The notes under the pieces were generated by a model. It searched no databases. It was not told the DNA's origin and saw only the letters and a program-made list of their open reading frames with translations. From Nocardioides jiangsuensis (lineage in GTDB: Bacteria > Actinomycetota > Actinomycetes > Propionibacteriales > Nocardioidaceae), in the NCBI RefSeq assembly GCF_019679455.1, contig NZ_JAIEZQ010000002.1:1178001-1242000 (forward strand): a DNA stretch of 64,000 bases. Direction: 5' to 3'. Shown here piece by piece: positions 2-13,800 of this stretch; within the stretch, counting starts at the first letter, position 1; each line of letters begins with the position of its first letter. The translations under genes and the position numbers were made by a program.

Positions 2-952
2 GAAGGAAGGACCTTCCTCTCTCTCTGGACCACGGGGTTCGACGGCAGGCTCCAGGACCGCCACCTGCTCGTCCCGATGTCCCTTGTCTCCGTCGGGCTG
101 ATCATCTTCGCGGTCCTGTTCATCGTGGCCCACCGGCTAGCAGCGTCGTACAACGTACGTCGCGAGGATGCACGCCTCAGCGAAGCTCAAGCTGAACTGG
201 CTTCCTGCCTCACTGACGCTCAGCGCGTCTTGAACTCGCGGCGGGCGGAGAACCATCAGCAGATCGGGGCAATGGTCAAGGAGTCTGTACGCCGGTTGCT
301 GCGGGCGCATGACGCCACCGAGGCAGGCGCTCAGGAACTCCGGGAAACAATGGTGGAGGTGCGGGACGCCCTTACACCCGTGCTCTCGTCGCTCCAGGCC
401 ACGAGCGCCGAGTCGGCTTCGTCTGCGGAACGCGCGAAGCAGGCAAGCGAGGCCCTCATCGCCGCGGTCGACCAGACAGAGTCCGGCCTGAAGCGGATCA
501 TGGGGGATCTCGGCGACTCCCTCGGAGCGCGCGTCGAGCACTTCGCCACCTCGTTGAGCGCGCACACCGACAAGTTCGCCAGCTCTGTCGGGACCCACGT
601 GGCCGAGCTTCGACGCGAGACGCAGGGTGCCCTCCATACAGCCGGGACAGCGGCTCGCGCCGCAGCGGATGAAGTCGTTTCGAGCGTGACTTCCGTAGCC
701 GAAGTCCAGCGTGGTGTCGTCGACGAGATCGCGAGATTGTCCGCTACGAGCACCAACTTCAGTGCTGACGTGAAGACGCTCATCGCCGCTCTGCAGGAGA
801 CGGTAAGGGAGGTCGACGCGTCACTGGTCCGACACGAGAGTGCCATGCAAGCGCAGGTATCGGAGCTGACATCTGCCCGGGATGCCGCAGAGCGCATGCT
901 CCTTCAGCTGGAGCAGCAGGCGTCGACCAACGGCCACGCCAGAACGTTCTGA
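2..952 (+). CDS. Membrane-anchored coiled-coil protein, MotA/TolQ-like candidate (5' truncated)
   Basis: The reading frame is open from the left edge, so the start probably lies outside the window; the first ATG inside is at 77 and would give 291 residues. A hydrophobic segment follows that Met (VGLIIFAVLFIVAHRLA), and the next roughly 250 residues are Ala/Glu/Ser-rich, helical and largely free of Gly and Pro, as expected for a long cytoplasmic coiled coil. The visible part therefore fits the last membrane helix and tail of a MotA/ExbB/ZorA-type channel subunit, but the diagnostic upstream helices are not in the window. The next gene, 12 bases downstream, encodes a single-pass MotB/TolR-like protein, which supports a paired channel. 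The channel assignment is inference; a membrane-anchored coiled-coil protein is what is seen. Confidence 0.6.
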   Translation, partial: EGRTFLSLWTTGFDGRLQDRHLLVPMSLVSVGLIIFAVLFIVAHRLAASYNVRREDARLSEAQAELASCLTDAQRVLNSRRAENHQQIGAMVKESVRRLLRAHDATEAGAQELRETMVEVRDALTPVLSSLQATSAESASSAERAKQASEALIAAVDQTESGLKRIMGDLGDSLGARVEHFATSLSAHTDKFASSVGTHVAELRRETQGALHTAGTAARAAADEVVSSVTSVAEVQRGVVDEIARLSATSTNFSADVKTLIAALQETVREVDASLVRHESAMQAQVSELTSARDAAERMLLQLEQQASTNGHARTF

Positions 953-964
953 GCGTGATTTTGG

Positions 965-1510
965 ATGGCATTGCAAGGGGATGCGCGGCGTGGTCGCCTT
1001 CTGACCATCGAGTCTGTGGCGGGGTGGGTCTTCGCTGACCTACTTCTCGTGCTATTCATCGTCGGATTGGGAACAGCTGTACCGGTGGAGCCGCCGCCAG
1101 CACCTGAACCGGAGCCCAAGGTCTCGAAGTCGCCGGAACCTCCGCCCATCGTCGGCATGAAGACCAACCCCGAGTTGCTTTCCATCTCCTTCGACGGAGG
1201 CGGTCTCCTTGCAGGGGCTGCTTCAGCGCGCCGGGAGGGAGCGGAGATCTGCAGGAGCCTCGGACGCAAGGCGCGGCCGATGGCCGGTGATCGCGCAGCA
1301 ATGGTGCTGGTTTTCGGTGGAGCTCCCGAAGTCTCGACGGGGCAGGCCGTCGCGCGTGCAGTGGCGAGACAGCTCCGTTGTGCAGACCCGAACGTCTTCG
1401 CCCGGAACCCAGCGACAAGGGCGTTTTGGGACGGCACCCTGCCACTCGGGAAGGCACGGCTCGAGGTGTTCCTCTTCACCACCAAGCAGAAGACAACAAC
1501 AGGAGATTGA
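965..1510 (+). CDS. Single-pass MotB/TolR-like membrane protein
   Basis: 181 residues. There is a short basic N-terminus, one membrane helix at about residues 17-36 (WVFADLLLVLFIVGLGTAV), a Pro/Glu-rich linker at about 37-60, and an extracytoplasmic domain of about 110 residues. This layout is that of MotB, ExbD, TolR and ZorB stator subunits: N-in, one helix, plug or linker, then a domain outside the membrane. The C-terminal domain has an OmpA-like rhythm (a VLVFGG strand, a helix, then FWDG and LEVFLF strands) but lacks a clear peptidoglycan-binding motif. An acidic residue (D21) sits at the start of the helix and could carry protons. The ribosome site is weak, suggesting coupling to the upstream gene. 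The family is an inference from architecture. Confidence 0.6.
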   Translation: MALQGDARRGRLLTIESVAGWVFADLLLVLFIVGLGTAVPVEPPPAPEPEPKVSKSPEPPPIVGMKTNPELLSISFDGGGLLAGAASARREGAEICRSLGRKARPMAGDRAAMVLVFGGAPEVSTGQAVARAVARQLRCADPNVFARNPATRAFWDGTLPLGKARLEVFLFTTKQKTTTGD

Positions 1511-1512
1511 CC

Positions 1513-2184
1513 ATGGGACAGAACATCCTCCCCTTCTACCTCGTCTGCGACGAGTCGGGCTCGATGGACGGGGAGCCCATCGATGCCATCAACACGGCAC
1601 TGCCCGAACTGCACCATGAGATCGGCATCAACCCCGTCGTCGCGGACAAGACGCAGTTCGCGATCATCGGGTTCAGCGATCGAGCCGAGGTGCTCCTGCC
1701 ACTTTCCAACCTGAGCCAGGTGGCATCGCTTCCTGTGCTCAGCACCAAGGGCAGCACCAGCTTCGGGGCCGCACTGCGCTGCGTGAAGGACGAGATCGAG
1801 GCCGACGTCTCACGCCTGAAGAGCGAGGGGCACCAGGTCTACCGTCCGGTGGTGTTCTTCCTTACCGATGGCTACCCCAACCACGGTGAGAACTGGCGCG
1901 ACGATCACCAAGCCTTGACGTCGCCTTCGTTCCCGTACCACCCCAACATCGTGGCGTTCGGCATCGGTGAGGCCGACCCGACCGTCATCTCGTCGATCGC
2001 GACGTTCCGAGCGTTCATGTCGGACAACTCCACGTCACCTGCGGACGCCTTGAACGAGTTCGCCAAGGCACTGACGAAGTCGATCGTGCGCAGCGGAAGT
2101 ACGCCTGCTGGAGACGGCGGAATGGTTCTCCAAGCGCCTGACCAGGTCCCTGGGTTCACAAGCCTCAGTGTGGATGCTCTGTGA
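1513..2184 (+). CDS. von Willebrand factor A domain protein, TerY-like
   Basis: 223 residues, almost all one VWA domain. The metal-ion-dependent adhesion site looks complete: DESGS near residues 13-17, a Thr in STKGSTSFG, and LTDG in the loop after the third strand. TerY-type VWA proteins are cytoplasmic and act with a PP2C phosphatase and a kinase encoded beside them in tellurite-resistance-like and conflict-related loci; exactly that order follows here. The start at 1513 has an AGGAGA ribosome site and lies 2 bases after the preceding stop. The stop overlaps the GTG of the phosphatase gene by 4 bases. Domain call is firm; role is inferred from context. Confidence 0.88.
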   Translation: MGQNILPFYLVCDESGSMDGEPIDAINTALPELHHEIGINPVVADKTQFAIIGFSDRAEVLLPLSNLSQVASLPVLSTKGSTSFGAALRCVKDEIEADVSRLKSEGHQVYRPVVFFLTDGYPNHGENWRDDHQALTSPSFPYHPNIVAFGIGEADPTVISSIATFRAFMSDNSTSPADALNEFAKALTKSIVRSGSTPAGDGGMVLQAPDQVPGFTSLSVDAL

Positions 2185-3341
2185 CTCACGTCGAACCAAC
2201 CGAGCAGCCTGATGAGGGCCCCGCGCAGGCAGAGTCCGAGGACCTCGTCAGGAACGCGACTGGTCCGGATGTGCGGCATGAGCCGTTGTCAACGCGGACT
2301 GCGCATGGGGCGCTCGCTTCTGAGGGCCCCGGATTCGAAGCTGATGACGCGGCCCCCATGGGAGGCAGCCCTTGCGAGTCCCATCAGGAGATGGCGGCCA
2401 CTGAACAAGTCTTCACCCCTGCGGTGTTACCCGGACTTCCTGCGGCCGGAACTCCTGGGATCCACGATGTCACGAAGCCACTGTCGTTCGGACCGGCAGC
2501 CGTGCTCAAGCCTCAACCGCCGCGTCTGCCCGACTGGCCGCATACGGCCATGGAACATGTACCTGACACCGCCATCGACTGGCTCGATACGGAGGTCGGT
2601 CACGTTCGCGCTGTGTCTGCGCGTGGCCACATGCACCGCTATCTGGGGGAAGTGCGGCAGGACTCATACGGGCTCGGACTGGTTGAGGATGTCCTAGTTA
2701 TCTCGGTGGCTGACGGGCTTGGCAGTGCGGAGTGGTCCCACATGGGGTCTGCCGTGGCAAGCGCCGAAGCCGCTCGTTGGAAAGGCTTTCTCGAGTTGAC
2801 CTGCGGTGACGCCGCCCCCTTCGAGACGGTGTCCATGGAGGCTCTGGCCGAAGAGCTCGCCGCCGTGGCCGCTGACCGCGGGGTCGACGTTCGCGAAGTT
2901 GCTACCACCTTGGTTGCCGCGGCCGTCCGTACTAGGCAGATGTCTGAGCAAGGCATCGCTTTCGAGGTGACACTGCTGCAGGTCGGCGACTCCACCGCCT
3001 GGCGGTGCTCCTCTGAGGAGGGTGGATGGGTCAAGCTCGGTGAAGAGCCAGACGATCGCTCGACCCTCATCAGCACCGCCGTCGACCCGCTGCCACTTCA
3101 TCACGAGGCCCGGGTGTGGAGGGAGACCTTCGAGGCCGGTGAGACGCTCGCCCTGGTGTCGGACGGCGTCGGGAACATGTTCCAGGCCAACTCGGACTAC
3201 GCGTCCGTTCTTGCCGGCCTGTGGCAAGACGGTGCGCCGACGCCTTCCCGGTTGCTCGAGGTCGTCGATGCCACGGTGAAATCGTTCGACGACGATCGAA
3301 CGTTCGTGGGCATCCACTTCCCCGGCCCGGCACAGTCATGA
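2181..3341 (+). CDS. PP2C-family serine/threonine phosphatase
   Basis: 386 residues from a GTG that overlaps the VWA stop (GTGA). About 130 N-terminal residues are low-complexity, rich in Pro, Glu and Ala and probably disordered. The catalytic domain follows, with RQDSYG, VADGLGSAEWSHMG, LQVGDSTAW, LVSDGVGN and DDDRTFVGI supplying the Asp metal ligands of PP2C enzymes. It should dephosphorylate Ser/Thr residues, presumably on the VWA protein or the membrane pair, opposing the kinases encoded next. The unusually long disordered N-terminus could itself be a phosphorylation target. The stop overlaps the next ATG by 4 bases. Confidence 0.9.
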   Translation: MTHVEPTEQPDEGPAQAESEDLVRNATGPDVRHEPLSTRTAHGALASEGPGFEADDAAPMGGSPCESHQEMAATEQVFTPAVLPGLPAAGTPGIHDVTKPLSFGPAAVLKPQPPRLPDWPHTAMEHVPDTAIDWLDTEVGHVRAVSARGHMHRYLGEVRQDSYGLGLVEDVLVISVADGLGSAEWSHMGSAVASAEAARWKGFLELTCGDAAPFETVSMEALAEELAAVAADRGVDVREVATTLVAAAVRTRQMSEQGIAFEVTLLQVGDSTAWRCSSEEGGWVKLGEEPDDRSTLISTAVDPLPLHHEARVWRETFEAGETLALVSDGVGNMFQANSDYASVLAGLWQDGAPTPSRLLEVVDATVKSFDDDRTFVGIHFPGPAQS

Positions 3342-4294
3342 CTTTCACTGCGCTCAGCACACTACGAGTCGGGCGCGAGCTGGCCTCGGGCGGGCAGGGG
3401 TCGGTCCTCGAGGTGGAGGGTCGCCGGGACGTCGTGTTCAAGCGGTACCACGACCCGCAGAATCCAGCGTTCAGTTCCGATGCGCTCGTCAAGCTCGTGA
3501 TGGAGCGGCACAAGATCTCCTACGCGGGGCAACCGGTCGACGAATGGGCCGCGTGGCCGAACGAGGTCGTCGTGGATGGCCCGAGCACGGTGGGTTTCTT
3601 GATGCGACGGGTGCCGGACGAGTTCTTCGTGCAGATATCCGGACGTCGCCACCCGGCAGAGCTCAGCTTTCTCGCAGCGCAGTCCAGTCCGCTCTGGGGC
3701 GACCTGCGTCTGCCAACGCTGCCTGAGCGACTTGCGATTCTCCACAACCTCGCCGGGGCTGTGCAGGCGCTCCACCAGCGCGGGGTCGTCCTGGGTGACA
3801 TCTCCTTCGCAAACATCCTGTGGTCGGCACGAGGAGCCGGCCGCATGATGCTGATCGACTGTGACGGCATGTGCAAACAAGGCGCCAGGCCTGTCCTACC
3901 CCAGGCTGAGACGATCGACTGGAACGATCCTTTGGCGTCCCCTGGCGCAGGGACCGACATGGACCGCGACCGCTACAAGCTCGCACTTGCCGTGATACGT
4001 GTGCTGACGAAGAGTCTTGATGCCAGGCCCGGAGCGGACCGCGTGGAGCCAGCACCCACCGGCGTCAGCGACCGTCTCGCCAGCAGTGTCAACCAGCTCC
4101 TCGGTCGTGCAGCCGGACCGGTGGGGTCCAGGCCGAGCGCGCATGAATGGGCTGCTCTCCTGAGTGGTCGAGACTCGCGTCCTGTCGGATCGACGTCGAC
4201 TCGTTCGAAGGGTGCCGCGCCAGACCCCAAACCTGGACTGCTCCGATCATCGCAGCCGCGCCAGTACCGCCCCGTCGAGCCCCCGGTGGTGTGA
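3338..4294 (+). CDS. Protein kinase-like protein of a TerY-P-type triad (first copy)
   Basis: 318 residues. Kinase landmarks are present: a Gly-rich loop (SGGQGSVLEV), a Lys in VVFKRY, a catalytic loop GDISFANIL with Asp and Asn, and IDCDG in place of DFG. The His-Arg of the usual HRD is absent, as in the divergent bacterial kinases found with TerY and PP2C. A motif TIDWNDP followed by DRDRYKLAL recurs in the next gene. The ATG at 3338 overlaps the phosphatase stop, and the stop overlaps the GTG of the second kinase, so all four signalling genes are translationally coupled. The basic, Pro/Ser-rich tail after about residue 280 looks disordered. Confidence 0.82.
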   Translation: MTFTALSTLRVGRELASGGQGSVLEVEGRRDVVFKRYHDPQNPAFSSDALVKLVMERHKISYAGQPVDEWAAWPNEVVVDGPSTVGFLMRRVPDEFFVQISGRRHPAELSFLAAQSSPLWGDLRLPTLPERLAILHNLAGAVQALHQRGVVLGDISFANILWSARGAGRMMLIDCDGMCKQGARPVLPQAETIDWNDPLASPGAGTDMDRDRYKLALAVIRVLTKSLDARPGADRVEPAPTGVSDRLASSVNQLLGRAAGPVGSRPSAHEWAALLSGRDSRPVGSTSTRSKGAAPDPKPGLLRSSQPRQYRPVEPPVV

Positions 4295-5466
4295 CCGTGC
4301 GTTGGTGGCGACGACTGGCAGGCTGGCTGTTGCGAAGATCGCTTGGTCGAAGGGACAGCCTCGACGCCTCCGGGGACACCGGTCGGTCCCCGATGGACGC
4401 AGCGGTGGGCGACGGCGACCTGTTGGTGCAGCAGGGGCCAGAGGATGGCCACATGCTGACAGGAGGCCAGGACGCGACTGGGCAGTCGTCACCGTCATTC
4501 AGGCACGTGACGCGGGAGCAGTGCATCGCGCGACTTGATGTCGTGTCCGCAGAGCGACCCACTTGCAACGGTTTGCCAATAGTCACCTATCCGAGCAGCG
4601 TGGGACGTCGAGCCGTGCAAGCACGCAGGCGCGAAAGCGGTCGGCTCAGGCGCGGCGTCTTGCTGGGTGATGGGGGTCAAGGACAGGTGCACGAGTTGGC
4701 TGGTGAACCGTCGCGGGTCGTCAAGGACTTCATCACTCCGATCTCCGAGATGGACGAAGTCTTCGAGGGCCTCGTGCTAGCCGGCGCGAATGTTCGGGCG
4801 CTCCTTGCCGGCGAGCCCATCACCCTGGCGTGGCCGCAGGAGATCGTCGTCTCGGGGCGCGAGATCACGGGCTATGTGATGCCTTCGATACCTGACCAGT
4901 TCTACTGGCAGGACAAGAAGTTCTTCCGCGGTAAACGCAGGGTGCGCGAGCTCCAGTACGCCGTGCGGCGAGAGTCGGCAGTCTCGATCCCATTTCGAGC
5001 TGACGACACCCACAGATTGGAGCTGGTTCGCCTCGTTGCAGCATTCCTCGAGGCGATGCACCGAGAAGAACTGGTGTACGGCGACCTGTCGTGGGGCAAT
5101 CTTGCCTTTAGCGTCGGAGACAAGGTGGAGCTTTGCGTCTTCGACTTCGACTCAACACGACAAGTCGGTCGACCGGCCTTCACCAGACAGCGCCCTGCGC
5201 AGACCGTTGACTGGAACGATCCGGAGGACCGCTCCAGGGCGGTCGCTAGTTTCGATTCAGACCGGTACAAGTTCGCACTGCTGGTGTACCGGCTACTTGT
5301 CGCCCATGACTTCGATTCTCGGCCGGAAGACGCCACACGGGTCGGCTCGATCTCTGGTCTGGATCAACGCGGCGTGCACGGTTTGCAGTCCTTGCTCAGG
5401 CGTGCAGCAGGACACGCCGGAACCCGGCCGCAGATCTCGGAATGGCTCGCCGTACTCCAGCGGTGA
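4291..5466 (+). CDS. Second protein kinase-like protein, paralogue of its neighbour
   Basis: 391 residues from a GTG overlapping the previous stop (GTGA). The first 130 or so residues begin with a basic amphipathic stretch (VRWWRRLAGWLLRRSLGRR) that could bind membrane, then low-complexity sequence. The kinase part has DGGQGQVHEL, VVKDF, the catalytic loop YGDLSWGNLAF and FDFDS in place of DFG. It shares TVDWNDP and DSDRYKFALLVYRLL with the first kinase, so the two are diverged duplicates. The N-terminal extension suggests different localisation or substrate. It is the last gene of the operon, and its stop lies inside a hairpin shared with the convergent peptidase gene. Confidence 0.8.
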   Translation: MTVRWWRRLAGWLLRRSLGRRDSLDASGDTGRSPMDAAVGDGDLLVQQGPEDGHMLTGGQDATGQSSPSFRHVTREQCIARLDVVSAERPTCNGLPIVTYPSSVGRRAVQARRRESGRLRRGVLLGDGGQGQVHELAGEPSRVVKDFITPISEMDEVFEGLVLAGANVRALLAGEPITLAWPQEIVVSGREITGYVMPSIPDQFYWQDKKFFRGKRRVRELQYAVRRESAVSIPFRADDTHRLELVRLVAAFLEAMHREELVYGDLSWGNLAFSVGDKVELCVFDFDSTRQVGRPAFTRQRPAQTVDWNDPEDRSRAVASFDSDRYKFALLVYRLLVAHDFDSRPEDATRVGSISGLDQRGVHGLQSLLRRAAGHAGTRPQISEWLAVLQR

Positions 5467-5478
5467 CAAGCTCACCGC
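5460..5478. terminator. Hairpin spanning two convergent stop codons
   Basis: GCGGTGA, loop CAAGC, then TCACCGC: a perfect 7-bp stem. The left arm contains the TGA of the second kinase and the right arm contains the TGA of the minus-strand peptidase gene. No T-run follows, so Rho-independent termination is uncertain, but the position suits a bidirectional 3' end. Confidence 0.5.
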
Positions 5479-6227
5479 AGGCCGACGGCGGCAGCGCGAC
5501 CAGTCTCGAGGGCATGGAGCACCGCTTTCAGTCCGTAACGGTCGACGGCAAAGGCTACAAGGCGTAAACCTCCGCCGTAGAGAGGGTCCTCGCTGGCGAT
5601 CATCTGGGCGGCGATCTGGCGCTCTACCGCCCCCGCGCCTGATCCGCGCAGGTGCTCCAGCGCGAGTGCCTCTGAGAATCCTTCGGCAACAACCGGTGAT
5701 ACCTTCGCTGGGCCCGCCTGCGCGAGCAACGCGTGGCCGAACTCATGCGCTAGCACTCGTCGGAAGTGTGGGCGAGGGAGCCCTGCAGCGATGCCGATCG
5801 TGATTGCTCCCGTGAGACGTCCATATCCGTCGTGGGTCCACTGCGTCACACCGAGCTGGTCAGGACCCGTCGTGAACAGCCCTGCCGATGTGAGCTGCGC
5901 CGGTGGCTTGAGAATCAGCTTGACGGGATGACGGATGGTGAGGCCAAGAGATGCCATGTGGCTCCCCACCTGGTGCAGCGGCTGCCCCAGGTCCGCAACG
6001 CTCTCCACTGCCTGACGGCTGCAGCTCTCACAGCTCGCGGGATGCGAGAGGGCGTTTCGCACGGGCAGTCCGCACCACCGGCACAGCGGCAACTGACGGT
6101 GAGAGACGCACCAGACCTGGCCGGTGGATGACACCATCCACTGCAATCCGACATCGAGTCCGCAGACGGCACAGTTTCCGCCACGAGATGCCAGCCCACC
6201 GGCCACGTCTGCCCCTGGAAGCCTCAT
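5472..6227 (-). CDS. LIM/zinc-ribbon plus DA1-like zinc metallopeptidase
   Basis: 251 residues. The N-terminus has paired zinc ligands in LIM-like order: C19-C22, C40-H43, C49-C52 and C66-C69. A metallopeptidase core follows with HEFGHALL at 161-168 and a downstream EGFSEALA (182-189) that would give the third zinc ligand. This matches the DA1-like peptidase arrangement, where LIM-type binuclear treble clefs precede a zincin. Plant DA1 is a ubiquitin-activated peptidase; the bacterial relatives are poorly characterised and occur in conflict-related neighbourhoods. No signal peptide is seen, so it is probably cytoplasmic. It converges on the kinase operon with a 5-base gap. Peptidase call is good; substrate unknown. 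Confidence 0.75.
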   Translation of the reverse strand: MRLPGADVAGGLASRGGNCAVCGLDVGLQWMVSSTGQVWCVSHRQLPLCRWCGLPVRNALSHPASCESCSRQAVESVADLGQPLHQVGSHMASLGLTIRHPVKLILKPPAQLTSAGLFTTGPDQLGVTQWTHDGYGRLTGAITIGIAAGLPRPHFRRVLAHEFGHALLAQAGPAKVSPVVAEGFSEALALEHLRGSGAGAVERQIAAQMIASEDPLYGGGLRLVAFAVDRYGLKAVLHALETGRAAAVGLR

Positions 6228-6317: not shown

Positions 6318-8105
6318 TTATCTGCTTCGTGCAAGTCCCGGGCACCAGTCGACGGTGGGGGTGAGTCCATGTCGGACCATCCAGTCGATCGCCTTGCGCA
6401 CGATCCTGACCTTGCGGTTCAGCTCTCGGATCGTTGCCGATTTCTCGTCTGACAACGGCGAGAGTCGCGCGTGCTCGGCAGCCAAGTAGCTCTCGATCTC
6501 GGCGAATACAAGCCAGCTCGAGTGGTCCGGGTCCAAGCCGAGGGCCTTGCGAGCATGGCCCACTGCCATCCGCCGTACGATCTCCGTCTCCAGCGTCTGA
6601 GCGGAGACGTCTCGGGCGAGTACCGCGGTAGCTGCCGTGACCGAGCCAGACCCGACGAGTCCGCCGGCCAGAATCATTCCGCCGACCATGCCTCCCGGCC
6701 CGAACGCGGCGAGGGAAGCAGTGATCGCCGCAGCCCCAGCGAGGCCCGCGGGAGCGGCAAGCATGAGCCCGATCGGGCCGGTCGCGAGCAAAGCCAGACC
6801 AACAGCGCCGACCGCGAAGCGGCCCCAGCCAGTGGAGGAGAACTCGTTCATGGCCGCCTTCAGAGAGTCACGTACCTTCCCGCCTGCGGCGCTCGTGAAG
6901 CCCAGGTCGCGCCAGACTGACGGGACAGCGTTGAGGTCGCTCGGTGAGACATCGATATCGTAGGGCGCGACCTGATTGGTGGTGGCAGCGACGATGACGG
7001 AGCGGAGCGCTGTCTCGATATCCCAGCCAGCTGGCGCAGCAGGACGTTTGGCCTTCTCGAGATCGACCAATGCATTGGGCACCGGACGGCCCTGCTCCAG
7101 TCGCTGTTCCTGCAGGAGCCGGGCGACGCCGGACTGTACGTCTTGCAGAGCAAGTCGAACCCTGTCCTTTTCAGACTTGCTTTTGATCAGCTCCCCCGTG
7201 TGGTGAGCGAAGACCACGCCCAGCAGCACTTGCTTCTCGTCGTCTCCAAGACGGACGTCCACGGCGCGGCCCGTGGTCACGGACGCTGTAACGGTCCTCG
7301 ACCATGCGTCGGCGACCGCGCCTGCGACCACAGGGTGCGCAAGGTAGGCGCTTGCGCTGTGCGAAAGCGGAGGGAGGGCGACTCGGATGTCATGTGCCGC
7401 GGGGAACAGGTAGCTGATGCCTCGGCCCCCGGTGACGGCGTCCCACCGGGAGAGGACATTGAGCCAGGAGCGGACCTGATGGTGGGGGAACGAACGAAGC
7501 AGCCGGTCCGGGCTCATTCGGTGCATGGGCATGAGGCCCGCCGGACTGCCGATGGTGACCATCCTTCGAATACGGACCCGTTCGGGCAGATGAGCCATGA
7601 GATCGATGGCGACCAACGAACCGAGGCTGTGTCCCACCACGACGAGGTCTCGTCTCGCACCGAGGCAGCTGAGAACCCGTTGAAGAACTGCGGCCCGCAA
7701 CGGCTTGCTGTGCAGATACCGGTCCGCGTCTTCGAGGTCACTGACCGGAGGGGCCCACCGTGCGGCACCGTCCGTGATGCGCTGACCGAAAGTGCCGAAC
7801 CCGCCAGCTACTGCATCGTCGGATGCCAGATCGCCGAGCCGGCGCTGTTCCCTCGCATACGAGGTGATGCTTGTCAGTCGCTCGGCGCGGTCTTCGGAGG
7901 GGAAGAAGGTCTCCTCCGGGAAAGTGACCCTGGCATCGGGGGGCGTCTTGAGGAGGTCGACGTAGTCGGGTGCAGCCACCGAGCGAGACTCGAGGTCCAG
8001 CCGATCGAAGCCTGCTGCGGCCCAGGCTTCGTTCAGCCCGGACAACCAGCGGTCGTTGCGAACGCCTTGTCCCACACCGTGCAGGTACAGCAACGTCGCC
8101 GACAC
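6318..8105 (-). CDS. Alpha/beta hydrolase (lipase-like) with C-terminal hydrophobic segment
   Basis: About 595 residues. The N-terminus has an oxyanion strand (LLYLHGVGQG) and the nucleophile elbow VVGHSLGSL, typical of lipase/esterase alpha/beta hydrolases. The C-terminal third carries a long Gly/Ala/Leu-rich run (about residues 425-505) that could form membrane hairpins, then a charged helical tail. A hydrolase with a membrane-active tail could attack lipids or lipid-linked substrates. I prefer the GTG at 8105 because AGGGAG lies 8 bases upstream of it; the GTG at 8114 would touch that site. It is 90 bases from the peptidase gene on the same strand. Specific substrate cannot be read from the sequence. 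Confidence 0.72.
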   Translation of the reverse strand: MSATLLYLHGVGQGVRNDRWLSGLNEAWAAAGFDRLDLESRSVAAPDYVDLLKTPPDARVTFPEETFFPSEDRAERLTSITSYAREQRRLGDLASDDAVAGGFGTFGQRITDGAARWAPPVSDLEDADRYLHSKPLRAAVLQRVLSCLGARRDLVVVGHSLGSLVAIDLMAHLPERVRIRRMVTIGSPAGLMPMHRMSPDRLLRSFPHHQVRSWLNVLSRWDAVTGGRGISYLFPAAHDIRVALPPLSHSASAYLAHPVVAGAVADAWSRTVTASVTTGRAVDVRLGDDEKQVLLGVVFAHHTGELIKSKSEKDRVRLALQDVQSGVARLLQEQRLEQGRPVPNALVDLEKAKRPAAPAGWDIETALRSVIVAATTNQVAPYDIDVSPSDLNAVPSVWRDLGFTSAAGGKVRDSLKAAMNEFSSTGWGRFAVGAVGLALLATGPIGLMLAAPAGLAGAAAITASLAAFGPGGMVGGMILAGGLVGSGSVTAATAVLARDVSAQTLETEIVRRMAVGHARKALGLDPDHSSWLVFAEIESYLAAEHARLSPLSDEKSATIRELNRKVRIVRKAIDWMVRHGLTPTVDWCPGLARSR

Positions 8106-8160
8106 GCTTATCACTCCCTACGGTCCGCTACTTCCGATCCGAGTCCAATGACACCATATG

Positions 8161-8613: not shown

Positions 8614-10881
8614 GTGACGGCTGTTCATCCGGAGGTCGAGGAGGAGCAGGTCTTCGTCGACCGTGCCTACGCGCTGTTCGACAAGGGATTGGCGGACACC
8701 GAGCGCAGCGTGGGGGAGTACCGCCCCCAGCACGCGTCGACGGCTCGTGCGCTTCAGCGTGCGCTCGACATCCTGCGTGACTCCAGGGGTTCGGGTCAGC
8801 TCGTGTTCGGCAAGATGCAGCGCGACGGTGAGACGTCGTACATCGGTCGCCGCCGAGTCCGCGATGAGGACTACAACCCCGTCGTCATCGGCTGGCACGC
8901 CCCGGCGGCTCAGCCGTTCTATGAGGCGTCACCCGGAGAGCCTCGTGATCTATCCCTAAAGCGGGTGTTCACCGAGGAGCAGCGTCGCCTGGTCAGGATG
9001 TTCGACGAGATCAGCCTCGTGGCCGCGGCGGATGCGGCAACCGACGGACTCGGTGAGCTGGCGATCTCCGACGCGCTTCTCAACGAGCTCGAGCGTTCGC
9101 GTGATGGCGCAATGCGGGAGGTCGTGGCGACCATCCAGGCGGAGCAGTTCCAGATCGTTCGCCATCCCCTTGACGGCGTCGTCGTCGTCCAGGGTGGGCC
9201 TGGCACCGGCAAGACGGTCGTCGGGCTTCACCGGGCCGCCTGGCTGGCGTTCAACTACCCTCAGCTCCGCCGGGCCGGGATCCTCGTCGTGGCGCCGTCG
9301 ACGACATTCCTGACTTACGTGAGCGGTGTCCTGCCCTCTCTCGACGTCACCGACGTCGACCAGGTCGAGATCCAGGCCCTGTACGCCGGTGAGGCGCGGG
9401 TGGTGGGCGCCGATCCGCCGGAGGCTGCTCGTGTGAAAGGCACCGAGTCAATGGCTGTCCTCATCCGCCGAGCACTAGAGGCCCGGGTCGGGTGGGGAGA
9501 CGACGACCTGGTGCTCAGCCTTGGCGCGGACCGGATCCGTGTGTCCGCCGAGGACCTGCACCGTTTGCTGGACGAGGCGCGCATGCGAGACCTGCCCTAC
9601 GCGGAGGGACGTGACTTCGTCCGCAACGCTCTGGCCGCGCTCGCCGCGAACAAGCACCGTGAGGACCAGCAAGCCCTGGGCAGACCGGTTCGTGCCAACG
9701 AGGCGACCATCCGTCGGCTCTCCGCCTTCGCGAACGCAGTCGACCGCATGTGGCCCTCCTTCACGCCGGAGGAGTTTCTTCGCAGTCTCTACGGCACCCA
9801 GTCCTGGCTCGTCGCTGCGGCGGAGGGAGTCATGACAGTCGACGAGCGCGCCCGGCTCTTCCGGCCCGTAACGGACAGCGTCGCCAACGAACCCTGGACC
9901 GAAGCGGACCTCTACTGCCTGGACGAGGTTGCTGGCCTCCTCAGCCGCGACCGCCTGACGTACGGCCACATCGTGGTGGACGAGGCTCAGGACCTGTCAC
10001 CTATGCAGGCTCGCGCGCTCGCGCGGCGTTGCCCGAGCTCCTCCTTCACCGTACTGGGTGATCTTGCTCAGGCCACGGGCCTTTGGGTTCGTGATTCCTG
10101 GGCCGAGCTGACCGCACACCTGAGCGACGGCTCCGAGTCACAGGCTGAGTTCTCGCTGTCGATCGGCTACCGGGTACCCGCCCCGGTCCTGGATCTCGCC
10201 GCCCGGCAGCTCCCACTTGCCTCGCCAGACCTCGTGCCTCCGCGATCCATCCGTGACGGGCTCGGTCCGCCATTTGTCGTCTACACGGAGGCCGAGGTCC
10301 TAGCGGACACTGTCGTGCACCAGGCCGCGACGACGACCGAGGGTGGGCTCTCCACCGCCGTGATCGTCGCCGATCCGTGGTTCGACGAGTATTTGCAGGT
10401 TCTCACGGAGGGCGGACTCGTCCCGGGCGACGGCCGCGACGGCGACTTCTCGAGGGACGTGACCCTTGTGCCTGCCTCCCAGAGCAGGGGCCTGGAATTC
10501 GACGCCGTACTTCTCGTCGAACCGGCAGCGATCGCGCGCGAGGCCGATCAGGGGCCACGACAGCTCTACGTGACCATGACCCGGTGCACCCAGCGGCTCG
10601 GAGTCGTGCATGCAGAGCCGCTGCCCCCAGGGTTTGAGGCTTACCGGGCTGCGCCCGCTGCCTCGGCGGATGAGCCGGAGACCCGTCCGCTGTCCGAGGA
10701 CTCGGACAGCGGAAGCCGGCACCGTCGTGAGACCCTCGGGCCGGACCACGATCGGATGGACGACCTTGCCGTCCTCATCGACCGTCTCAGCAAGTCGGAT
10801 CGTGAGATGGTGCATGCACTGGTACGGCGCCTCCTGACCGACGCGGAGCAGGAACACGATGAAGGGAACTGCACGCAGTGA
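8614..10881 (+). CDS. HelD/UvrD-like superfamily 1 helicase family protein
   Basis: 755 residues from a GTG with TAAGGAG 7 bases upstream. After a helical N-terminal arm come Walker A GGPGTGKT at 194-201, DEAQD at 456-460, the motif GDLAQATG, and VPASQSRGLEFDAVLLVEP plus LYVTMTRCTQRL near the C-terminus. The split of the ATPase core and the N-terminal arm fit HelD, which binds RNA polymerase and releases it from DNA and, in actinomycetes, can give rifamycin tolerance. An unrelated UvrD-like defence helicase is the alternative. The 3' end overlaps the start of the giant helicase by 4 bases, implying joint function. The C-terminal acidic tail (after about residue 700) is non-conserved looking. 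Confidence 0.82.
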   Translation: MTAVHPEVEEEQVFVDRAYALFDKGLADTERSVGEYRPQHASTARALQRALDILRDSRGSGQLVFGKMQRDGETSYIGRRRVRDEDYNPVVIGWHAPAAQPFYEASPGEPRDLSLKRVFTEEQRRLVRMFDEISLVAAADAATDGLGELAISDALLNELERSRDGAMREVVATIQAEQFQIVRHPLDGVVVVQGGPGTGKTVVGLHRAAWLAFNYPQLRRAGILVVAPSTTFLTYVSGVLPSLDVTDVDQVEIQALYAGEARVVGADPPEAARVKGTESMAVLIRRALEARVGWGDDDLVLSLGADRIRVSAEDLHRLLDEARMRDLPYAEGRDFVRNALAALAANKHREDQQALGRPVRANEATIRRLSAFANAVDRMWPSFTPEEFLRSLYGTQSWLVAAAEGVMTVDERARLFRPVTDSVANEPWTEADLYCLDEVAGLLSRDRLTYGHIVVDEAQDLSPMQARALARRCPSSSFTVLGDLAQATGLWVRDSWAELTAHLSDGSESQAEFSLSIGYRVPAPVLDLAARQLPLASPDLVPPRSIRDGLGPPFVVYTEAEVLADTVVHQAATTTEGGLSTAVIVADPWFDEYLQVLTEGGLVPGDGRDGDFSRDVTLVPASQSRGLEFDAVLLVEPAAIAREADQGPRQLYVTMTRCTQRLGVVHAEPLPPGFEAYRAAPAASADEPETRPLSEDSDSGSRHRRETLGPDHDRMDDLAVLIDRLSKSDREMVHALVRRLLTDAEQEHDEGNCTQ

Positions 10882-13800
10882 GCTCGGGCGTGGACACGAT
10901 GGAGGCGTCGAACCTGCCGGATCCGCTGGCTCAGCGCCTCAGGCAGCAACTCGACACATGGCGGCAGGATCTCCTCACACTGGATCGCCGGCAGCGGCTC
11001 GTTTACTTCAAGCACTCCAAGTCGGCGTCGCTCGAAATCGTCGAACCATCCGCGGCCGAGATCCTCACGCGCGTGAGTGGACGCCGCCAGCTGATTTCCC
11101 ATCAGCCGCAGGACGGTGAGCAGTCCACTGCTCCCCCGGGTTCCCTGGTCGCTGCGGGCAAGACGGAGACCGAGCTGCGCAACGCATGCCGCCGGCTCGA
11201 CCTACTCTCCCAGCAGGTGTACGCCGACAGAGGTTTCTGGACGCTGTACCTCGGTATCGGCATGCTTACTTGGGTCGACCCAGCGGACGGCAAGTCGGTC
11301 GACAGCCCCCTGCTGCTCTGCCCGGTCGAGGTAGCTCGCAGCGGCGCCCAGTCGCCTTACTTCGTCACGCGCAACGAGGACGAGGCCGTGGTCAATCCCG
11401 CCCTCCGGCTGCACATGGAGAAGGACTTCTCCGTGAAGCTGCCTCAGGCGGATCCGTTCGCTCCAGACGTCGACAAGCTGCTCGACGAGGTGCGGGTGGC
11501 CGTCAGCGGCTGGGACGGCTGGTCAGTCACCGCGCGCGTGGTCCTGACCACCTTCAGCTTCCACAAGGAGGCTATCTACCGAGACCTCTCGGACCACGAG
11601 GCAACGGTGTCCGCGCACCCGATCGTGCAGATGATCGCGCTCGGCCCGGACGCGCCATTCGCCTCCCGCTTCGCGTTCGAGTCGCCGGAGGACAGGGACC
11701 TCGACACGGTCTGGCCCCCCGAGCAGATGATGACGATCCTTGATGCGGACTCCAGCCAGCGTCGATGTGTCCTCGCTGCCCGCGACGGCAAGAGCTTCGT
11801 CATGGACGGACCTCCGGGCACCGGCAAGAGCCAGACCATCTCTAACATCATCGCCGAGCTGATGGCCGCGGGTCGGAGCGTCCTGTTCGTCAGTGAGAAG
11901 GCTGCGGCGCTCGACGTCGTGCGCGACCGACTGACCAGCAAGGGACTCGGCGACTTCGTGCTCGAGCTGCACAGCCATGCGGCGACGCGCAAGGAAGTGG
12001 TGGCGCAGCTCGACCGCGCGCTCACCCAGCGAGCCAAGGTGAAGGGCGATTTCAGCACTAGCCAGCGGGCTGGCCTGCAGAGCGCCCGTGAGGAGCTGTC
12101 TGCTTTTGCGGCCGCTATGAACGACGAGCGAGCGCCGCTGCGGCGCAGCATCTTCGACGTGCTCGGCCGCCTTATGGAGCTGCAGCACGTCGGCCACAAG
12201 CCGCTGGACAGGCCCGACGCTTGGCGAGACCTGTCACCGGGGAGGCTCGAGTCGATCCTGTCGGCTGGGCACCGGCTGCAGCGGGCGTGGCGCCCGATCA
12301 GTGAAGGAGACGACTTCCTGTGGCGAGGCCTGGCCGAGCACCAGCACGCCGCCAATGGCATCGACCGGATCAAGCGGGGCACCCAGCACCTCCTGAAGTC
12401 GACCGAGGAGCTGATCGACCGAGCGCGGGCCGTGGACGCGGACCTGCTGCTCACCTGGCCCATGGACATCGCCTCGATGCGCAGACGCGCGAGACTGTTG
12501 GAGCTCCTGAGCCAGTGGCCCGAGGCTGAGCAATCCTGGCTTGTCATGGCCGATCCGTCAGTTCTCCCTCGGCGCGTCGAGGAGCTGAAGCAGGCGGTCA
12601 CCCTCTACGAGCGCTCCGTCGATGATCTGCGTGACGTCGTCGGGGAGGCATGGGACCGCTTGGATCCCGAGTTGGCACAGGGCTTCGACAGACTGGGTCG
12701 CGCCGAAGCCGGCGTGTGGGTGCCGGAGCGCTCCATGAGATCCGATGAGTTCGCGGACTCCGTCTCCTTCCTCGCAGAGGCACCGATGAAGCTGGCGCCT
12801 CTCGTCGAGGAAGCACGCCAACTAGGCGCCATGCTCGGGATCAGCACAGACGCGCTATCGCTCAGGCGCGCCATTGAGCTCGCCCACCTTGGTGCCTTGG
12901 GCGGGGCCGCGGCGATGCCGGAGCGCGGCTGGTTGAATCCGTCGGTCCAGTCTGCGCTCAATGAGTCGCACAAGGTTCTTGCCTCGCTCGTGGAGGTCGT
13001 CAACGAGCGTCGGGAAGCTGTCGAGCAGGTGTTCACTCCCGACGCGCTTGAGCTGGACCTGGCGATACTCAACACCCGGTTCAAGGAGGCCCATACGGGT
13101 CTGCGGCGATGGAGCAGCCAGGCCCGCGCGGACAAGAAGCTGCTCAAGGGTGTGACGGTCACGGGCAAGGTGGACAAGGGTGTGCTCGCCCGTCTGGACG
13201 AGGCTGTCGCGTGGCAGAAAGCGGAGAAGCGGCTGAACTCTGCCGAGAGCGAGCATGCTCCGAGGCTTGGCAGGTACTACCAGCGGACCGAGACGAACTT
13301 CTCCCGCGTCGCTCAGGCAATCGAAATCGCCCAGCGAGCGGTTGAACTGGCAGGCAATGACCTCAACGCCGGCCCGTTGGCGGAGCAGCTGAGCGTCGAC
13401 GGCAGGCCCGACCCCCGGCTGACCATCGTCGCCGGTCGGCTCCAGCGCGGGTGCGAGGCCTGGCTGAAGGAGGCGCACGGAAAGCTCGGCGCCGCCCCGG
13501 CGGACTCGCTGGCAGCGAGGCCGTTCGTCGAGGCGGCCGAGCTCAGCGGTCAGGCGGCCGAATACCTTCATCCGCTTGTGGAAGCGTCCCGCTACGTCAC
13601 CGACGTCGCAGGGCAGCCGTTGACGCTGGAGCGCGGGCAGCGGGCCCGTCACCTGGCGACCCTGGTAAGTAACGCGTCGGCGACCATCTACGACAGCTAC
13701 GAGGAGGACCGGACGCTTCTCGGCAAGCGCTACGAAGGTCTGACGACCGCCTGGCGCGCCCTAGAGACAGCGGTTGCGTGGGCCAACGCGATCCGCCAGA

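What the first reader, a model, noticed from the sequence alone, without database searches (positions are those of the whole stretch)
2..5466. Membrane channel-like pair joined to a TerY-P phosphosignalling module with two kinases
Six same-strand genes with gaps of 12 and 2 bases and then three 4-base overlaps encode a coiled-coil membrane protein, a single-pass MotB/TolR-like protein, a VWA protein with intact MIDAS, a PP2C phosphatase and two kinase-like proteins. VWA-PP2C-kinase triads (TerY-P) and MotAB-like pairs (Zorya) are known separately; I do not know of this combination being described. It could be a proton-driven membrane complex switched by phosphorylation, acting in phage defence or envelope stress. 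The channel assignment rests on topology, and gene 1 is truncated.
Basis: partly seen in the sequence, partly recalled or inferred. Interest (0 to 1): 0.8.

Follow-up and report, generated by a model that had tools for sequence, protein, structure and literature searches.

The report
Membrane pair with phosphorylation switch operon
A rare six-gene operon in some actinobacteria couples two membrane proteins to a phosphorylation switch; related bacteria keep the same membrane pair but have it beside a GTPase-type switch instead, which suggests a reusable membrane device, probably for defence, whose channel or motor activity is still unproven.

Summary
The six genes and their spacing are real. 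Gene 1 is cut by the window edge; in the genome it is whole (423 aa, two membrane helices, long coiled-coil-like tail). The order g1-g2-VWA-PP2C-kinase-kinase occurs in 5 of the 10 genomes with a clear g2. g1 and g2 are adjacent in 10 of 10. In the other five the pair stands with a degenerate g6-type protein, without VWA, PP2C or a separate g5; in four of these a GAP1-N2 gene lies nearby, with TerD and DO-GTPase genes where tested. So g1-g2-g6 is the constant core and the signalling part is exchanged: the main new finding. The motor claim is not established: g1 and g2 match no MotA/ExbB or MotB/OmpA model, and comparison with flagellar MotA/MotB does not beat the best shuffled control. It is not excluded: g2 has an invariant membrane Asp (10 of 10), and g1 has conserved Ser/Thr in both membrane helices that are lost in the one relative without g2, whose membrane region has diverged generally. 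Defence is inferred from context: BREX genes lie within about 20 kb in 3 of 5 full-operon genomes. Verdict: new variant of TerY-P-like signalling modules.

The parts
2..952 (+). g1 (3' 316 codons; the full gene of 423 aa starts 320 bases left of the window, G000:C2:1177681-1178952): N-terminal region, two TM helices, long coiled-coil-like tail
   Evidence: found in 11 of 372 genomes of the order
965..1510 (+). g2 (181 aa): single TM helix with invariant Asp25, Pro-rich linker, outer domain modelled as strand-helix-strand-helix-strand-strand
   Evidence: 10 strong and 1 marginal of 391 genomes of the order
1513..2184 (+). g3 (223 aa): TerY-like VWA protein, MIDAS D13-x-S15-x-S17, T82, D119
   Evidence: Pfam VWA E 1.7e-11; residues invariant in 5 of 5
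2181..3341 (+). g4 (386 aa): PP2C-type phosphatase with intact metal-binding motifs
   Evidence: Pfam PP2C_2 E 3.6e-20; motifs invariant in 5 of 5
3338..4294 (+). g5 (318 aa): divergent protein kinase, GGQG loop, K35, GD154..N159, D174-C-D176
   Evidence: below Pfam cut-off, so assigned by motifs and weak profile matches
4291..5466 (+). g6 (391 aa): second divergent kinase with a basic, amphipathic-looking N-terminus; degenerate in the genomes without VWA/PP2C

Best explanation
The operon encodes an envelope-anchored conflict (probably anti-phage) device made of a constant membrane core and an exchangeable signalling part. g1 and g2 form a complex in the cytoplasmic membrane: g1 gives a two-helix bundle and a long cytoplasmic tail, g2 gives one Asp-bearing helix and an outer domain that faces the cell wall. 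g6 is held at the membrane by its N-terminus and works next to the g1 tail. In this genome the core is set by a TerY-P-like switch: kinases g5 and g6 add phosphate, PP2C g4 removes it, VWA g3 is the scaffold or metal-dependent adaptor. A disturbance of the envelope or a cytoplasmic infection signal tips the switch and changes the state of the core, most likely causing ion leakage or dormancy through g1-g2. In sister genomes a GAP1-N2/DO-GTPase/TerD-type module lies in place of the phosphoswitch and g6 is a pseudokinase. Shown: gene order, co-occurrence, exchange of neighbours, conservation or loss of catalytic residues, invariant Asp. Inferred: complex formation, membrane contact of g6, phosphoregulation, ion conduction, anti-phage function.
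For: g1 and g2 occur in the same genomes: all 10 with a strong g2 have g1 directly upstream. Six-gene order in 5 of these 10, from three families. The other five have g1-g2-g6-type with no VWA or PP2C at E<=10 in the 20 kb read around each. In 4 of these 5 a GAP1-N2 gene is near (4 of 4 over cut-off); DO-GTPase2 was tested in three (1 over cut-off, 2 below it); TerD was tested in three (2 over cut-off, 1 below it). g6 keeps GGQG, Lys, GD..N and DxD in 5 of 5 full-operon genomes and all of them in 0 of 5 of the others; 4 of those 5 have a TM-like N-terminus (by eye). VWA MIDAS and PP2C motifs invariant in 5 of 5. Asp25 of g2 invariant in 10 of 10. g1 Thr87 and Ser137 invariant in 10 of 10, residue 79 Ser/Thr in 9 of 10 (Cys in one); in G146, which has no g2, these are Val, Ala and Phe. 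Context within about 20 kb: PglW, PglX, BrxC, PglZ in G000; PglX, BrxC, PglZ, BrxD, BrxHI in G035; PglW in G048; Hhe/PDC-S37 at 10878-16358.
Against: No sequence homology of g1 or g2 to known channels or motors: Pfam, PADLOC and NCBIfam give only coiled-coil-type or chance matches; PF01618 and PF00691 each find one gene in this genome, a MotA and a MotB that I read as flagellar, not g1 or g2; hhalign scores exceed the control means but not the control maxima. g1 has two TM helices. The g1 model is of low confidence. The OmpA-like matches of g2 have Z below 8, within the aligner's background. G146 keeps five of the genes without g2. The loss of Ser/Thr in G146 is not specific: only 22 of 46 invariant g1 residues are kept there, 9 of 13 before TM1 but 3 of 7, 5 of 12, 1 of 4 and 4 of 10 in TM1, loop, TM2 and the following stretch. 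T87 and S137 lie nearer the outer face if g1 is N-in, whereas Asp25 of g2 lies nearer the inner face; only residue 79 is at a matching depth. No recognisable effector enzyme in the operon. BREX may be mere island neighbourhood: two of the three genomes are of one genus.
Confidence: 0.45

Rival explanations
1. g1-g2 is a minimal ion-driven motor of the 5:2 kind (Zorya-like) with a two-helix A subunit; phosphorylation gates it, and the g1 tail passes the signal to a nuclease encoded elsewhere.
For: Invariant Asp in the single helix of g2; Ser/Thr in both g1 helices, lost where g2 is absent; long g1 tail and OmpA-like strand order of g2; OmpA, SiiA and MotB domains among the structural matches. 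ZorAB has the Asp facing a Ser/Thr ring, a cytoplasmic tail and a peptidoglycan-binding domain (PMC11890865: passages and part 1 of section 6 seen).
Against: hhalign not above the best control; two rather than three or four TM helices; no room for a torque domain between the helices; OmpA-type peptidoglycan-binding residues not recognisable in g2 (by eye); in G146 the whole membrane region has diverged, not the Ser/Thr alone.
Confidence: 0.25
2. g1-g2 is a membrane receptor only: the outer parts sense envelope damage or a ligand, the tail signals to kinase g6, and there is no ion conduction.
For: Two helices around a short conserved outer loop, then a long tail, is a chemoreceptor-like layout (the matches to chemoreceptor coiled coils may be composition-driven). 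A g1-like gene exists without g2 in G146. A g6-type gene stays with the pair in all ten genomes.
Against: Does not explain the invariant Asp within the g2 helix, nor why g6 has lost catalytic residues in 5 of 10 genomes.
Confidence: 0.3
3. The operon is a metal or envelope-stress response with no role in phage defence; its place in defence islands is hitchhiking.
For: TerY-P triads are described as linked to tellurite resistance and metal sensing (PMC11090510, passages); no effector in the operon; no copies in plasmid records (0 of 72,556) or confirmed in viral contigs.
Against: Rare and patchy (11 of 391 genomes in the order), as accessory defence genes often are; BREX genes within about 20 kb of three copies, HmaA- and DrmD-like genes beside one (G097), Hhe in this window; TerY-P-like modules with a kinase-OB fusion are reported to defend against phage (Gao et al. 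2020, not seen, as cited in PMC11090510).
Confidence: 0.2

Closest known systems
TerY-P triad (VWA-PP2C-kinase; Anantharaman et al. 2012, not seen, as cited in PMC11090510)
   Same: Adjacent TerY-like VWA with intact MIDAS, PP2C and kinase in one operon
   Different: Two kinases, neither with a zinc ribbon or OB fold recognised by Pfam; preceded by a membrane pair
GAP1-N2 GTPase-centric systems, third theme (Kaur et al. 2020, PMC7159879)
   Same: Actinobacterial; kinase (sometimes with TM helices), PP2C and standalone VWA linked to a GAP1/DO-GTPase core; four relatives of this pair lie near GAP1-N2 genes
   Different: No GAP1 or DO-GTPase among the ten proteins scanned here; the two sections read (29, 33) do not mention a pair like g1-g2 (figures and source data not seen); in the ten genomes VWA-PP2C and GAP1-N2 were not seen together beside the pair, though full-operon loci of other genomes were not scanned for GAP1
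Zorya (ZorA-ZorB with further Zor proteins)
   Same: Layout: membrane protein with a long tail plus Asp-helix protein with an outer domain, in a defence-gene neighbourhood
   Different: No detectable homology outside coiled coil, two TM helices in g1, no further Zor protein among the ten scanned, kinases and phosphatase instead
Flagellar-type MotA-MotB (present in the same genome, L095)
   Same: Trp, then aromatic-x-Asp at the start of the B-subunit helix (by eye); OmpA-like outer domain suspected in g2
   Different: hhalign scores do not exceed the best control; Trp-Asp spacing 6 in MotB, 4 in g2
BREX type 2 (Pgl)
   Same: Genes of it lie within about 20 kb of the operon in 3 of 5 full-operon genomes; includes a kinase (PglW)
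   Different: The six genes are not BREX components by PADLOC

Membership tests
TerY-P triad | TerY-like VWA with MIDAS | tested here: met
TerY-P triad | PP2C phosphatase with metal motifs | tested here: met
TerY-P triad | Ser/Thr-type kinase with catalytic residues | tested here: met
   motifs; Pfam score below cut-off
TerY-P triad | kinase fused to a zinc ribbon (or OB fold in TerY-P-like modules) | tested here: not met
   no such domain in g5 or g6 in Pfam at E<=1; hence filed as TerY-P-like only
MotA/ExbB/TolQ/ZorA | match to the MotA_ExbB profile | tested here: not met
   ZorA match (E 3.5e-6) covers only the coiled-coil-like residues 165-323
MotA/ExbB/TolQ/ZorA | three or four TM helices | tested here: not met
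   two hydrophobic helices in g1 of 11 of 11 sequences
MotA/ExbB/TolQ/ZorA | Ser/Thr in pore helices facing the partner's Asp | tested here: inconclusive
   conserved Ser/Thr in both helices, loss in G146 together with general divergence; no complex model
MotA/ExbB/TolQ/ZorA | profile similarity to MotA beyond chance | tested here: not met
   score 22.5; 40 controls: mean 12.5, maximum 23.2
MotB/ExbD/ZorB | single TM helix with invariant Asp | tested here: met
   10 of 10
MotB/ExbD/ZorB | OmpA-like outer domain | tested here: inconclusive
   OmpA C-domain Z 7.8, SiiA 6.9, MotB up to 6.1, all below 8; no Pfam match at E<=1
MotB/ExbD/ZorB | profile similarity to MotB beyond chance | tested here: not met
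   score 19.3; 40 controls: mean 13.0, maximum 24.5 (the reversed alignment)
5:2 ion-driven motors | five A and two B subunits, ion flow | not testable with these tools
   no complex prediction available
Zorya | further Zor protein (ZorC, D, E, F or G) in the operon | tested here: not met
   none among the ten proteins scanned against PADLOC
GAP1-N2 systems | GAP1-N2 and DO-GTPase genes at the locus | tested here: not met
   none among the ten proteins of the window region scanned; GAP1-N2 met in four relatives without VWA/PP2C

The most novel reading that the evidence does not exclude
A so far undescribed, minimal ion-conducting or rotary membrane complex (two-helix A subunit, Asp-helix B subunit) that serves as a plug-in core for prokaryotic immunity and can be switched either by a VWA-PP2C-kinase phosphorelay or by a GAP1/DO-GTPase/TerD module, with a membrane kinase that decays to a pseudokinase when the phosphoswitch is lost.
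Probability: 0.25. Interest if true: 0.85.

Novelty: new variant of a known kind. Interest (0 to 1): 0.55.

Why it matters
TerY-P and GAP1/DO-GTPase modules are predicted regulators of conflict systems. A membrane pair that is found with both, and keeps a kinase-derived partner at the membrane, points to a shared output and makes it testable: mutate one Asp and one kinase Asp and measure membrane potential and phage plating. If the pair conducts ions it would be a second lineage of motor- or channel-like immune complexes beside Zorya, this one under phosphorylation control.

Tried and rejected
Sequence searches for the pair: Pfam, PADLOC and NCBIfam on g1 and g2 gave only coiled-coil-type or chance matches. 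PDB sequence search gave no meaningful match for g2 (best E 0.1) and coiled-coil or helical-bundle chains for g1, among them the ZorA chain 8vvn_C at E 0.005, over profile positions 227-359. Viral contigs: 46 pattern stretches, none confirmed. Phylum sample of 396: own genome and one marginal hit (G702, E 6.4e-6) with the two-row profile, own only with the ten-row profile. G404 (E 9.1e-4) and G702 score weakly with the ten-row profile (E 0.0012 and 6.5e-4) and were dropped from the counts of pair carriers. The genome searches score only the first few candidates of each genome (8 for g1 and g2, 5 for g5), so counts are lower bounds.

Structure: the g1 model (374 aa, A. rutila protein, 3 sequences) has mean pLDDT 56.7 and was not searched. 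The g2 model has pLDDT 66.5; its Foldseek list against the PDB has no match at E<=0.001 as the tool counts it and is led by RusA and IspF. VIA-align puts a DhaQ chain first (Z 7.9) and an OmpA C-domain second (7.8); 17 of the 50 rows carry OmpA, MotB, SiiA, RmpM or YfiB in their titles, the rest are mostly other folds. I treat this as suggestive only.

Considered and dropped: SLATT-type pore for g1 (no such match in Pfam at E<=1; that Pfam holds SLATT models is recalled); EACC1 two-gene system (section 33 of PMC7159879 read: one TM protein plus a caspase protein, different); a BREX component (a term search of PMC12839542 found neither TerY nor MotA).


Full report
OBSERVATION. The window is positions 1178001-1242000 of contig 2 of a 3.97 Mb genome. 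The missing part of g1 was read from the genome: 1177681-1178952, 423 aa. Pfam finds VWA in g3 (1.7e-11) and PP2C_2 in g4 (3.6e-20), nothing in g2, coiled-coil-type matches in g1, and kinase models below cut-off in g5 and g6.

DISTRIBUTION. A g2 profile hits 11 of 391 genomes of the order: 10 strongly (E 3e-41 or better) and one marginally (G404, E 9.1e-4, dropped). A profile of the g1 N-terminal part hits 11 of 372: the same 10 plus G146. In a phylum sample of 396 genomes there was no strong hit besides the own genome. No plasmid record matched and no viral contig was confirmed. Only the first candidates of each genome are scored, so these are lower bounds.

TWO FORMS. In the ten genomes g1 and g2 are adjacent and followed, directly or after the VWA, PP2C and g5 genes, by a g6-type protein. 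Form A (G000, G311, G110, G035, G048; three families) has all six genes in the same order. Form B (G094, G126, G208, G237, G097; own family) has only g1-g2-g6-type; VWA and PP2C profiles find nothing at E<=10 in the 20 kb read around each, and the g5 profile finds only the g6-type protein. In four form-B loci GAP1-N2 is over its cut-off (4 of 4). DO-GTPase2 was tested in three: over cut-off in one (E 1.8e-6), below it in two (E 1.6e-4 and 2e-4). TerD was tested in three: over cut-off in two, below it in one (E 1.8e-4). A GmrSD_C/HNH gene lies next to g1 on the other strand in 4 of 4. The fifth, G097, has HmaA- and DrmD/DpdE-like helicase genes downstream. In an unrooted tree of g1+g2 the four GAP1-linked copies form one clade (support 98), so the linkage was probably gained or lost once.

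CONVERSE. A g5 profile hits 55 of 391 genomes of the order at E<=0.001, most of them weakly. I read the ten best-scoring genomes outside the ten pair carriers, 16 to 20 kb each. One (G146) has g1-like, VWA, PP2C, g5 and g6 but no g2; six (G279, G270, G026, G034, G164, G058) have VWA, PP2C and a kinase without g1 or g2; one (G099) has a PP2C piece and a kinase; two (G354, G403) have the kinase alone. So the pair belongs to a subset of TerY-P-like modules, and a g1-like gene can do without g2.

KINASE g6. In form A, 5 of 5 keep GGQG, the Lys, GD...N and DxD; in form B, 0 of 5 keep them all, though single motifs survive (G126 keeps GD and DYD). Form A proteins begin with a basic stretch whose best helical moment is 0.49-0.92; form B gives 0.26-0.31 in the four that start with a TM-like stretch (by eye) and 0.54 in G097; no control was run for the moments. 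This suggests, without proof, that g6 sits at the membrane with g1-g2 and has a structural role that survives loss of catalysis.

IS THE PAIR A CHANNEL OR MOTOR? For: Asp25 in the g2 helix is invariant in 10 of 10. In ZorAB the critical ZorB Asp packs against a ring of Ser/Thr from ZorA (PMC11890865: passages and part 1 of section 6 seen). In g1, Thr87 and Ser137 are invariant in 10 of 10 and residue 79 is Ser/Thr in 9 of 10; in G146, without g2, these are Val, Ala and Phe. That is one comparison, and the whole region has diverged there: 22 of 46 invariant residues are kept, 9 of 13 before TM1, but 3 of 7 in TM1, 5 of 12 in the loop, 1 of 4 in TM2 and 4 of 10 after it. The outer domain of g2 is modelled as strand-helix-strand-helix-strand-strand and an OmpA C-domain ranks second (Z 7.8), with SiiA 6.9 and MotB up to 6.1; the tool warns that Z below 8 may be a common arrangement. 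Against: hhalign of g2 with nine MotB proteins scores 19.3 (controls: mean 13.0, maximum 24.5, the reversed alignment), and g1 with six MotA proteins scores 22.5 (mean 12.5, maximum 23.2), 40 reversed or shuffled controls each. PF01618 and PF00691 find in this genome only one MotA and one MotB, which I read as the flagellar pair. g1 has two TM helices in 11 of 11 sequences; the g1 model is poor. If g1 is N-in, Thr87 and Ser137 are nearer the outer face than Asp25 is. I therefore do not file the pair under MotAB/Zorya, but keep 'works like' open at about 0.25.

CONTEXT. Within about 20 kb of the operon: PglW, PglX, BrxC and PglZ in G000; PglX, BrxC, PglZ, BrxD and BrxHI in G035; PglW in G048, whose other genes look syntenic with G035. 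G035 and G048 are of one genus. A HelD-like helicase gene (window 8614-10881; name recalled) has a homologue beside the operons of G035 and G048 (35 percent identity). The window also has a 1826-aa Hhe/PDC-S37 protein. G311 has type IIG-like restriction enzyme and ZacC matches about 5 to 16 kb beyond the operon. G110's flanks were read as ORFs only and showed no BREX gene by eye. This is a defence-type setting for most copies; function remains inferred.

KNOWN WORK. CoCoNuT paper PMC11090510 (passages): TerY-P is VWA, PP2C and a kinase fused to a zinc ribbon; TerY-P-like modules with an OB fold are reported to defend against phage (citing Gao et al. 2020, not seen). Kaur et al. 2020 PMC7159879 (outline, passages and sections 29 and 33): GAP1-N2 systems, with a third theme of kinase, PP2C and VWA; no pair like this in those sections (figures and source data not seen). 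MotAB evolution paper PMC12505986 (passages). BREX paper PMC12839542 (passages). My statement that the combination is undescribed rests on searches in an open-access library only.

Noticed in passing
window 5472-6227 (-): DA1-like metallopeptidase gene (PF12315, E 1.8e-10), convergent with the operon; a 40 percent identical homologue sits in the same place behind the G311 operon (L025 13778-14464), so 2 of 5 full operons have it.
   Followed up: partly
window 10878-16358 (+): 1826-aa DUF4011 / AAA / MTES_1575 nuclease / DUF3320 protein, strong PADLOC match to PDC-S37 (1231.6 bits) and Hhe (539.4 bits).
   Followed up: partly
G000:C2 1155213-1168812 (L075, L007), upstream of the window: Type 2 BREX genes PglW, PglX, BrxC/PglY, PglZ on the same strand as the operon; DUF262-like genes (name recalled) lie between.
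   Followed up: yes
window 8614-10881 (+): HelD-like UvrD-family helicase (name recalled; UvrD match) with 35 percent identical homologues beside the operons of G035 and G048.
   Followed up: partly
L028 7534-8424, L029 11742-12578, L030 11621-12547, L031 11525-12685: GmrSD_C/HNH nuclease gene next to g1 on the opposite strand in all four GAP1-linked loci, with a hydrophobic stretch near the N-terminus that looks like a signal or anchor (by eye).
   Followed up: partly
L065 7087-11798 (G146): Five-gene version without g2; the VWA reads DESYS where the others read DESGS, and the g1-like protein has a shorter tail (about 309 aa in all).
   Followed up: partly
window 6318-8114 (-): 598-aa protein with weak, sub-threshold lipase / alpha-beta hydrolase matches; function unclear.
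   Followed up: no
L029 16916-19072 and homologues in L028, L030, L031: 719-aa protein without a Pfam match, with 34-36 percent identical homologues, upstream of GAP1-N2 in all four GAP1-linked loci.
   Followed up: no
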